A stretch of 64,000 nucleotides of DNA from Carposina sasakii (taxonomy: Eukaryota > Arthropoda > Insecta > Lepidoptera > Carposinidae), in the NCBI GenBank assembly GCA_014607495.2, contig CP053167.1, positions 5,394,001 to 5,458,000 on the forward strand. The letters run 5' to 3'. Shown one piece after another: positions 55,101 through 58,100 of the stretch. How positions within the stretch are numbered: the stretch's first letter is position 1; each line of letters begins with the position of its first letter. The notes beneath the pieces were generated by a model. The model worked only from the letters and a program-made list of their open reading frames with translations. It was not told the DNA's origin and searched no databases. A program made the position numbers and the translations under genes.

Positions 55101-58100
55101 TATAAGGCCTTCCCTAATAGCTATTGGAAGAAGAATCCGGATGTCAGTGATACGCCTTACAGGTTGGTTTTTGTTGAGTCTTTAGTTTCTGTTAATTTAC
55201 TACCCTGCTCCCCTCATCATCTTCATCTTTCTGTCTTTAATATTATGGGGTCGGTGGGACATGGTTTCTTTCGAAATTTATATCATCAAAGATTTGACGT
55301 TTGTTTTACGGCCAGCTAAAAGTAGCAGGCACGTCATCCTTTTCTGTCACATAAAGCCTTTGTTAGAGCGAGAAAGATAGCGGGAATATAATCTTTCTCA
55401 CTGTAAAATAGACAAACATCAAAAATTTGCAACTTTAGAACTTAAACATATAGGATTCATAAGTATAAAAAAATATGTGAAAAGTTGTTTTTTTTTTTTC
55501 GTGTAAATGAAGTTACCTATTTATATTTTCTATTACAGAACAGTGAAAACTTTAGTGCACACTCTAGTCAAGATGAAGGGGGCGTCAATAACGTCGCACC
55601 TGTCACAGATTCCTGATCTCAACGAGTCTGATTTATACCCATATCTGCTGAAAGTATTGAAGGTAAGCTTGAATTCTTTCTGCAAGTGATGATGGAACTG
55701 AACAACGTATGGTGAAACTTTTTATCAACGTATAGTGAAACTTTTTTCGAGTATGTATTTCTTTGTCACGCTCCAGAGCCTAAATATCTAAAGAGCTTGT
55801 CACATTTGAGCATGAGGGGTATCATTAGACTCGTCTTACTCTTGAGTGTGACACTGGGTCAATATTTTTACGCAGACGGGTTTTTTCTCTAAATAATTTA
55901 TTTTATGATTAGGCGGTCACCAACCCGCCTGCCCAGCGTGGTGACTATGGGCAAAACCCCCCTGTGGCAGTAGCCTTGTGCCCTGGGGGAGGCCTACGTC
56001 CAGCAGTGGACTGCAATGGGCTGAACACGACAATGATTAGGTGAAGCAGTCAATCGACCGCAATATGTTCAACTTAATAATGATCTTGCCATTCAATAAT
56101 ACCATTAATATACCATCCATTACCAACATTATTTGCTTCCAGCAACTGAAGCTAGACGACAAAAAGGAGAACACAGACTCTAACGGCACCGCAGTACTAG
56201 CGGCTAACAACACCGCCCTCAACCAGAACCGTCTGCCACGAGGGGTGCACGAGGAGTTAGCCACCATTCTCAAGCGGATCGGCAGCAAGCAGCACAACCG
56301 CGAGGCGCTGCGACAGCTGCATGACTTGAGGGTAGGTGTGATGCTGAGGAGGATCGACAGCAAGCAGCACAACCGCGAGGCGCTGCGACAGCTGCATGAC
56401 TTGAGGGTAGGTGTGATGCTGAGGACGATCGACAGCAAGCAGCACAACCGCGAGGCGCTGCGACAGCTGCATGACTTGAGGGTAGGTGTGATGCTGAGGA
56501 GGATCGACAGCAAGCAGCACAACCGCGAGGCGCTGCGACAGCTGCATGACTTGAGGGTAGGTGTGATGCTGAGGAGGATCGACAGCAAGCAGCACAAACC
56601 GCGAGGCGCTGCGACAGCTGCATGACTTGAGGGCAGGACATTACAGCCATACAATGGTAACATAAGCCTTCCCCACTGCGACTAGTTGGAATCCTGATAC
56701 CCGCATCATGGCATGTGCCTTACAGTTTCTCACAATAGCCACTTCCGTGCGAGATTTCGGAACTAACATAATAGATAATGATAAGATTGTCGTATTATTA
56801 TATATACATCAACCAGGGCTATGGTTTATACTTATAGGAACTATTTGGTAATAACCAGAGGTCGGAATTAGGTAGAGTCATTTATGTACAGAGGGTGGCC
56901 AAATTATTATACTCAAGCAAAATTTTCTGTATTTTTGTAATATTTTATTGTTCTTGCATAGTTTTATTTTTATTGTTACATTTTTTTATTATTTTGAACA
57001 TATTTCAAATATAAATAAACATTTAAAACTTCAGTTTATTCCTTATCTATACTAAAATAAGAATAAAAAAATATTTTAATATTTAGTAACTCCGCCTTTT
57101 GCTGCTATTACAGCTTGGATGCGACGTGGCATGCTTTCAATACATGATACAGCTACTTGTTGCAGTTTCGGAGTGTTGTGCCATGCTTTGATTATGTTTT
57201 CAATCAACTCTCTTTTATTGGTTACAATTTTTTCTTTGGATATTTCAGTTTTAAGAACTGCCCACACATTTTCAATGGGATTCAGGTCAGGGGAGTTACC
57301 AGGCCAGTTCAAAGTGTTGATATTATTATCTTTTAAATATTTGGTGATAGATTTGGCCTTGTGACAGGGTGCAGAATCATGCATAAATATGAAATTTCCA
57401 TCTGGGAACCATTCTGCTGTCTGTGGGGCCAGTTTTTCCATCAAAACTTTCTTATACTGGTCTTGGCGCATGGTTCCTTGAACGATGTATAGCCTTCCAG
57501 TTCCTTTGCTGCTTATGACAGACCATATCATAACTGAAGTAGGGTGTTTTACACGTTCTACAATACAGTCCTCTTTAAATTTTTCGTCAGGCCTTCGTCT
57601 AACAAACTCAGTTTTGTCCTGAAGAATTTGTATGGATGACTCATCTGAGAAGCAAACCTGCAAAAAGAAAGTTTTATGTTAATAATCATAAAAAAAACTC
57701 CACATAAGTTATCGTATTTTAACTATACCAACCCGTTTCCAGTCTTCCAGTGTCCAATGTTGGTGTTCTTTAGCCCAAGCCAGACGTTTAGCTTTCATGT
57801 CAGCCGTAAGTCTTGGCTTCTTCTGTGGTCGACAGCATTTCAGTCCCATCTCTAAAAATCTTCTTCTGAGTGTCCTTTCTGATATTTGAACCCCAGAGTC
57901 ATTTAATAGTTTTTGAATAACATGCTGAGGTTTTCGACGGTTCTCTAAAGTAATACGACGAATTTCCCGCTCTGTTCGAGGTGTAGTAATACGCTTTCTG
58001 CCACACCTTCCCAACCGATTCATCTCGATCGATTTTCCAGCATCCAAATTTTTCTTAATATTACGAACGCTGGACTGCGATACTTTTAGTAATTCAGCTA

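What the first reader, a model, noticed from the sequence alone, without database searches (positions are those of the whole stretch)
56269..56643. Tandemly repeated exon end with four identical 5' splice sites in msps exon 32
A 75-bp unit with the last 21 codons of exon 32 and its donor is repeated five times. Donors 1-4 are all GTAGGT with the same flanks. 75 is 25 codons and the frame is open through copies 1-4, so donors 2, 3 or 4 would add 25, 50 or 75 residues (each VGVMLRRIDSKQHNREALRQ plus LHDLR) inside the C-terminal domain just before the conserved ERHPDVDIW stretch. Copy 5 has a frameshift and a GC donor, as if the array is closed off. This is a splice-site repeat that could tune protein length, and repeat number may vary between individuals.
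Basis: partly seen in the sequence, partly recalled or inferred. Interest (0 to 1): 0.85.

Follow-up and report, generated by a model that had tools for sequence, protein, structure and literature searches.

The report
Tandem copies of a splice donor
In a moth or butterfly microtubule gene, the end of one exon with its splice donor has been copied several times in tandem; this is most likely a chance DNA repeat lying mainly in the intron, though it could in principle yield longer proteins.

Summary
The array is real. A 75-bp unit occurs 4.8 times at 56276-56637 (98% matches) across the end of exon 32 of an intact lepidopteran mini spindles (msps/XMAP215) gene, the only msps locus found. Donors 1-4 (56331, 56406, 56481, 56556) are identical AGG|GTAGGT. 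Copies 2-4 are in frame; copy 5 has +1 A and a GC donor.

The regulatory reading is not favoured. All 29 lepidopteran-type relatives inspected join LYDLR directly to ERHP, so donor 1 gives the ancestral protein. Exon 32 lies between introns of 480 and 2651 nt. In published human minigenes with long flanking introns, two identical strong donors gave only the upstream one. All four extra copies turn an invariant Gly into Asp. An open 25-codon unit has about a 24% prior chance. A second array of the unit lies next to a truncated tRNA-like element on another chromosome.

Best account: a local minisatellite that captured an exon end, donor 1 the main site, copies 2-5 mostly intronic. In-frame +25/+50/+75 isoforms are not excluded; only RNA can decide.

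The parts
31175..61159 (+). msps (XMAP215/ch-TOG family) gene, coding exons 1-36
   Evidence: tblastn exon by exon with Aphomia protein P0001, splice model, open translation of 1910 aa with four uncertain junctions; only locus matched in the genome search
56143..56331 (+). exon 32 as ended by donor 1 (189 nt, phase 0 at both ends)
   Evidence: protein junction HDLR|ERHP matches 29 of 29 inspected lepidopteran-type relatives
56276..56331 (+). copy 1: exonic 56-nt part of the repeat unit
56332..56406 (+). copy 2 of the unit (VGVMLRRIDSKQHNREALRQLHDLR), donor 1 at its start, donor 2 at its end
56407..56481 (+). copy 3 (VGVMLRTID...), donor 3 at its end
56482..56556 (+). copy 4, donor 4 at its end
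56557..56632 (+). copy 5 with one extra A (frame broken, stop follows) and a GC dinucleotide after it (AGG|GCAGGA)
56332..58982 (+). intron 32 if donor 1 is used (2651 nt)
58983..59136 (+). exon 33, starts ERHPDVDIW

Best explanation
A minisatellite formed by tandem duplication of 56 nt of exon 32 plus about 19 nt that follow donor 1, and then expanded to 4.8 units. The splicing machinery most likely uses donor 1 for nearly all transcripts, because it is the first of four equally strong donors across an exon between long introns. This keeps the ancestral protein and leaves copies 2-5 in the intron, where they drift and are homogenised without coding constraint. A small leak to donors 2-4 would give in-frame longer isoforms that the cell may tolerate. 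Shown: array, identical donors, frame, intact gene with one locus found, ancestral junction, second array elsewhere. Inferred: donor use, neutrality, and order of events.
For: Ancestral junction without insert in 29 of 29 inspected lepidopteran-type proteins. Flanking introns 480 and 2651 nt, the long-long class, in which identical strong donors in five minigenes gave only the upstream site and near-equal natural donors lean upstream (human data; 250-nt border). Gly that is invariant in 24 of 24 aligned relatives is Asp in all of copies 2-5 but Gly in copy 1 and in the C26 array, so the extra copies evolve apart from the exon. Array of the same unit, with the same duplication junction, on C26 next to a truncated tRNA-like element, with no other msps match there. 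Only these two places in the genome search (the tool scores best candidates only). Prior chance of an open, frame-keeping unit about 1/3 x 0.73.
Against: No RNA was available. Donor 1 is only moderate (5.86, 26th of 31 reliable donors of the gene, tied with one other; three other GT sites in intron 32 score higher). Only donor 1 can pair in a 13-bp stem (one bulge) with upstream exon sequence (96-nt fold -35 kcal/mol, z -1.5); with 150-nt flanks its mean unpaired probability is 0.14 against 0.45-0.47 for donors 2-4, which could shift use downstream. With 80-nt flanks the gap is small (0.40 against 0.46-0.47), with 50-nt flanks there is none, and in the shortest sliding fold donor 1 is slightly the more open (0.55 against 0.48-0.50). 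Across all natural human competition events, before matching for site strength, the downstream donor wins in about 60%. The unit's 18 nt before the shared part look weakly like the exon's own 18 nt (9 of 18 bases, P 0.02; BLOSUM P 0.017; post hoc), and no intron-like continuation of the unit follows copy 5, so the origin of those bases is not settled.
Confidence: 0.68

Rival explanations
1. Donor-array length switch: donors 1-4 are all used, giving msps proteins with 0, 25, 50 or 75 extra residues; each insert repeats the end of helix H1, the loop and most of helix H2 of the C-terminal bundle.
For: Identical donors and open frame through copy 4. Donor 1 may be partly hidden in a stem. Tandem repeats at exon-intron boundaries are known to give alternative transcripts in human genes (PMC2812944, passages). 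A single-sequence fold gives one helix per unit, but at mean pLDDT 56.
Against: No insert in the 29 lepidopteran-type relatives inspected. Gly to Asp in every extra copy. Identical-donor experiments favour the upstream donor. The insert point maps inside helix H2 of ch-TOG (after the equivalent of residue 1857; H2 is 1846-1860), part of a tightly packed core.
Confidence: 0.14
2. The downstream-most good donor (donor 4) is dominant, so the species makes mainly a msps with 75 extra residues.
For: Donor 4 is the array donor nearest the acceptor, and donors 2-4 are less structured than donor 1 in the +/-150-nt calculation.
Against: Introns are long, where the across-the-exon rule applies; a 414-nt exon would be far larger than the 65-245 nt of the gene's other modelled internal exons; it would alter a conserved bundle in an essential gene (essentiality recalled).
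Confidence: 0.08
3. Exon-internal in-frame duplication: the whole 25-codon unit is exon, and the true donor lies after the last copy.
For: Unit is 25 codons; VGVMLR weakly resembles LATILK (P about 0.02, post hoc); the base pattern after copy 5 is AGG|GCAGGA, a possible GC donor.
Against: Copy 5 has a frameshift and stop and its donor scores -1.4; divergence between copy 1 and the others is confined to the first part of the unit apart from one base, while the rest is identical, which points to a breakpoint and not to age.
Confidence: 0.04
4. Assembly or haplotype artefact: fewer copies exist in the animal.
For: No reads were available here.
Against: The same array structure with private variants on another chromosome; copies carry distinguishing changes (copy 3 C, copy 5 +A).
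Confidence: 0.06

Closest known systems
Internal tandem repeats at exon-intron boundaries of human duplicated genes (PMC2812944; passages read)
   Same: A multi-nucleotide tandem repeat spans an exon-intron boundary and offers alternative splicing of the repeat; repeat may be kept or spliced out.
   Different: Those are in primate segmental duplications and can create novel introns; here one msps locus was found, and the intron is probably old (inferred from the conserved protein join; relatives' gene structures not seen).
Tandem array of dual-specific splice sites in UBC and VCX3A (PMC10809524; abstract and passages read)
   Same: Splice motif repeated once per repeat unit, unit length a multiple of three here as in many of the cases listed there, possible stochastic repeat inclusion.
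   Different: There each site works as both donor and acceptor and splices between units. Here the unit ends an exon and only donors are needed; an AGGT is in each unit but lacks a visible pyrimidine tract.
Competing identical 5' splice sites in exon-definition minigenes (PMC9225289; abstract, results part 1 and passages read)
   Same: Identical donors in one exon between long introns, only position differs.
   Different: Designed constructs with two strong or two very weak donors in cell transfections; here four moderate donors in a moth or butterfly.
Intron gain by tandem duplication of proto-splice sites in Drosophila (PMC2891723; abstract and one section read)
   Same: Tandem duplication of exon sequence with a splice motif, extra copy intronised.
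   Different: No new intron is seen here; a donor was multiplied.
Intronic VNTR affecting splicing of ABCA7 (PMC5954066; abstract and outline read)
   Same: Intronic tandem repeat whose length may affect splicing.
   Different: Length correlates with exon skipping; the unit is not described in the abstract as carrying the donor.

Membership tests
Tandem repeat at exon-intron boundary (ITR type of PMC2812944) | Tandem repeat overlapping an annotated or inferred exon-intron boundary | tested here: met
   Array 56276-56637 crosses the inferred boundary 56331/56332
Tandem repeat at exon-intron boundary (ITR type of PMC2812944) | Copy number variable between paralogs or individuals | not testable with these tools
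   one assembly; no reads; no relatives' genomes held
Tandem repeat at exon-intron boundary (ITR type of PMC2812944) | Transcripts both with and without the repeat | not testable with these tools
   no RNA data
Dual-specific splice site array (UBC type) | AGGT motif once per unit | tested here: met
   TAG|GTGTGA at 56335, 56410, 56485 and 56560 scores 5.44 as donor
Dual-specific splice site array (UBC type) | Motif acts as an acceptor as well as a donor; intron length a multiple of the unit | not testable with these tools
   no RNA; sequence before AGGT (GCATGACTTGAGGGTAG) has no clear pyrimidine tract by eye
XMAP215/ch-TOG/msps gene family | Full-length sequence similarity exon by exon, with the C-terminal bundle | tested here: met
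   37 tblastn rows with P0001, 36 used as exons and one from a repeat copy; C-terminal match to CKAP5 structure 9f4c. TOG domains were not scanned separately.
Intron gain by tandem duplication | A new intron absent from relatives | not tested
   relatives' gene structures were not held; the event as seen adds no intron

The most novel reading that the evidence does not exclude
The array is a genetic length dial: unit number sets the longest exon, donor choice is spread over the copies because donor 1 is masked in a stem that the other donors lack, and each step adds one helix-loop module of 25 residues to the TACC-linked C-terminal bundle of msps.
Probability: 0.08. Interest if true: 0.78.

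Novelty: new member of a known kind. Interest (0 to 1): 0.33.

Why it matters
It is a natural, near-perfect version of a classic splicing experiment: four identical donors with identical near flanks competing in one exon. Donor usage in this insect would directly test the position rule for donor choice outside mammals, whatever the answer. If longer isoforms are made, it would also show a minisatellite adding whole helix modules to a conserved mitotic protein. If only donor 1 is used, it shows how an array that hits an exon can be harmless.

Tried and rejected
Paralogue or pseudogene as source: rejected at this sensitivity; msps matches only on C20 (23 scored of 37 candidates) and the frame is open. 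Wide dispersed repeat: rejected at this sensitivity; only C20 and C26 match. Faster protein change in the repeated exon part: not seen (1 of 13 positions conserved in at least 95% of relatives changed, against 38 of 1166 elsewhere, Fisher P 0.36; 24 relatives used of 30 lepidopteran-type hits; P0011, P0014, P0021, P0022, P0028 and P0030 left out; changes at less conserved positions, such as Gln for Glu and Arg for Ser or Ala, fall outside this count). High GC3 of the repeated exon part (0.89 against 0.60 for the CDS): noted, not pursued. Strong RNA structure: z only -1.5. Structure model of the extended exon: single sequence, pLDDT 56, not used as evidence for the main reading. Rfam and tRNA scans of the C26 locus: nothing at their thresholds. 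Literature searches on repeats and duplicated donors and on ch-TOG structure gave the papers cited; no paper on an array of identical donors in msps was seen in those listings, which is no proof that none exists.

Full report
What is there. Tandem Repeats Finder places a 75-bp repeat at 56276-56637, 4.8 copies, 98% matches. Read in the frame of the exon, copies 1-4 are LATILKRIGSKQHNREALRQLHDLR, VGVMLRRIDSKQHNREALRQLHDLR, VGVMLRTIDSKQHNREALRQLHDLR and VGVMLRRIDSKQHNREALRQLHDLR; copy 5 has one extra A and runs into a stop. Copy 1 shares 56 nt with the others (one base apart), about 19 codons and not 21. The four donors AGG|GTAGGT at 56331, 56406, 56481 and 56556 are identical in at least 20 nt before and 19 nt after; the fifth is AGG|GCAGGA.

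The gene. An exon-by-exon model from a relative (P0001, named as Aphomia sociella msps by its source and marked low quality there) gives 36 coding exons from 31175 to 61159. Exon 32 is 56143-56331; intron 31 is 480 nt and intron 32 is 2651 nt. Four junctions (4, 25, 26, 28) look uncertain; the modelled protein is 1910 aa against about 2000 in most full-length lepidopteran hits. The frame is open, and msps matches nowhere else in the 399-Mb, 31-contig genome (23 of 37 candidates were scored).

Which donor is ancestral. P0028 was not seen at that place. Four more distant proteins read there (P0044; P0031, P0040, P0046) also show no insert; the other distant hits were not checked at this place. 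So donor 1 makes the ancestral join, and donors 2-4 would insert 25, 50 or 75 residues in frame. The join falls inside helix H2 of the C-terminal bundle: by the alignment to 9f4c and the published helix limits (H2 1846-1860, passages), it is after the equivalent of ch-TOG residue 1857. My mapping of chain position 1 to residue 1817 follows from those two calls.

Which donor is likely used. Scored against the gene's own 30 other reliable donors, donors 1-4 get 5.86, 26th of 31, tied with one other; donor 5 gets -1.4. Three other GT sites in intron 32 (57285, 58167, 58845) score higher, the first at 9.32. Since donors 1-4 are equal, position and structure decide between them. In PMC9225289 (results read), two identical strong donors in an exon with 365-nt flanking introns gave only the upstream donor, in all five minigenes; with very weak sites the larger exons were mostly skipped and the smaller ones kept the upstream preference. 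Among near-equal natural sites the upstream site won in 60% of events; among all events, before matching strength, the downstream site won in about 60%. The border between the modes is about 250 nt. Exon 32 is of the long-long class. Against this, only donor 1 can pair with upstream exon sequence in a 13-bp stem with one bulge (z -1.5, 14 of 200 shuffles as good). In one calculation its mean unpaired probability is 0.47, 0.40 and 0.14 with 50-, 80- and 150-nt flanks, while donors 2-4 stay at 0.45-0.47. In a sliding fold it is 0.55, 0.29 and 0.28 with growing span against 0.42-0.50 for donors 2-4. Reliable donors of the gene, this one included, range from 0.13 to 0.66 with 80-nt flanks, so this is no strong argument.

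Is the array selected? Frame-keeping and openness have a prior of about 1/3 x 0.73 = 0.24 (0.73). All four extra copies have GAC (Asp) where copy 1 has GGC (Gly), a residue invariant in 24 of 24 aligned relatives. The exon copy shows no significant excess of change at conserved positions. Arrays of period 30 or more and at least 2.5 copies occur at three places in 199.8 kb sampled from 20 contigs, with 70-87% matches, so an array meeting an exon end somewhere in a genome is no surprise (inference), though one this uniform was not among those three.

The second array. The unit occurs again on contig C26 (6522680-6522880): about 2.6 units with the same junction GCTGAGG|AGGAT, Gly codon GGC as in copy 1 and a private T. 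It abuts a truncated tRNA-like element whose tail is replaced by the array (SINE is my recalled label; a 16-nt pattern of it occurs at four places in the window). The genome search with a msps protein shows no other msps match there. So the junction is probably older than the transfer, and the Gly to Asp change spread through the msps copies later (inference).

Origin. A simple tandem duplication would leave the start of the intron (GTAGGTGTGATG...) after the last copy; instead GCAGGACATTACAGCC follows. Either the last copy lost it or the spacer came from elsewhere. The spacer shows a weak likeness to the exon's own 18 nt (9 of 18, P 0.02), which I count as post hoc. Flank searches that could settle this did not complete by the tool; a comparison with 24 sequences already held (292,782 bases) gave, apart from the queries' own places, only the tRNA-like element on one C26 side, nothing for the other C26 side, and inverted repeats inside intron 32.

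Verdict. Most likely the exon still ends at donor 1 and the rest is an intronic minisatellite. It is a new member of a known kind (tandem repeats at exon-intron boundaries, PMC2812944, passages), of moderate interest because it is a clean natural test of donor choice.

Noticed in passing
window 56848-58853 (intron 32): Nested mobile elements: an outer pair of inverted repeats (ACCAGAGGTCGGAATTAGGTA...) encloses a Tc1/mariner-like element with TACAGAGGGTGGCCAAATTATTATACTCAA ends and transposase-like sequence in two minus-strand reading frames (57076-57678, 57709-58203). Together they span about 2 kb of the 2.65-kb intron (family name recalled).
   Followed up: partly
window 5219-5862: A second uniform tandem array, 129-bp period, 5 copies, 96% matches.
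   Followed up: no
L003 3681-3881 (C26:6522680-6522880): The msps exon-end unit as a 2.6-copy array whose edge replaces the tail of a tRNA-like element; template switching or repair might have joined them.
   Followed up: partly
window 56275-56331: Third-position GC of the repeated exon part is 0.89 against 0.60 for the whole coding sequence, which might reflect biased conversion within the array.
   Followed up: no
window 56262-56274 with 56325-56338: Exon sequence CACCATTCTCAAG can pair with the donor 1 region in a 13-bp stem; copies 2-4 lack the left arm.
   Followed up: partly
window 56320-56322: Tyr that is invariant in 24 of 24 aligned lepidopteran relatives is His in this species, and the same codon is in every repeat copy here and on C26.
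   Followed up: partly
window 55913-56025 (intron 31): A dispersed repeat of about 110 bp with five other copies or pieces in the window and more in sampled contigs.
   Followed up: no
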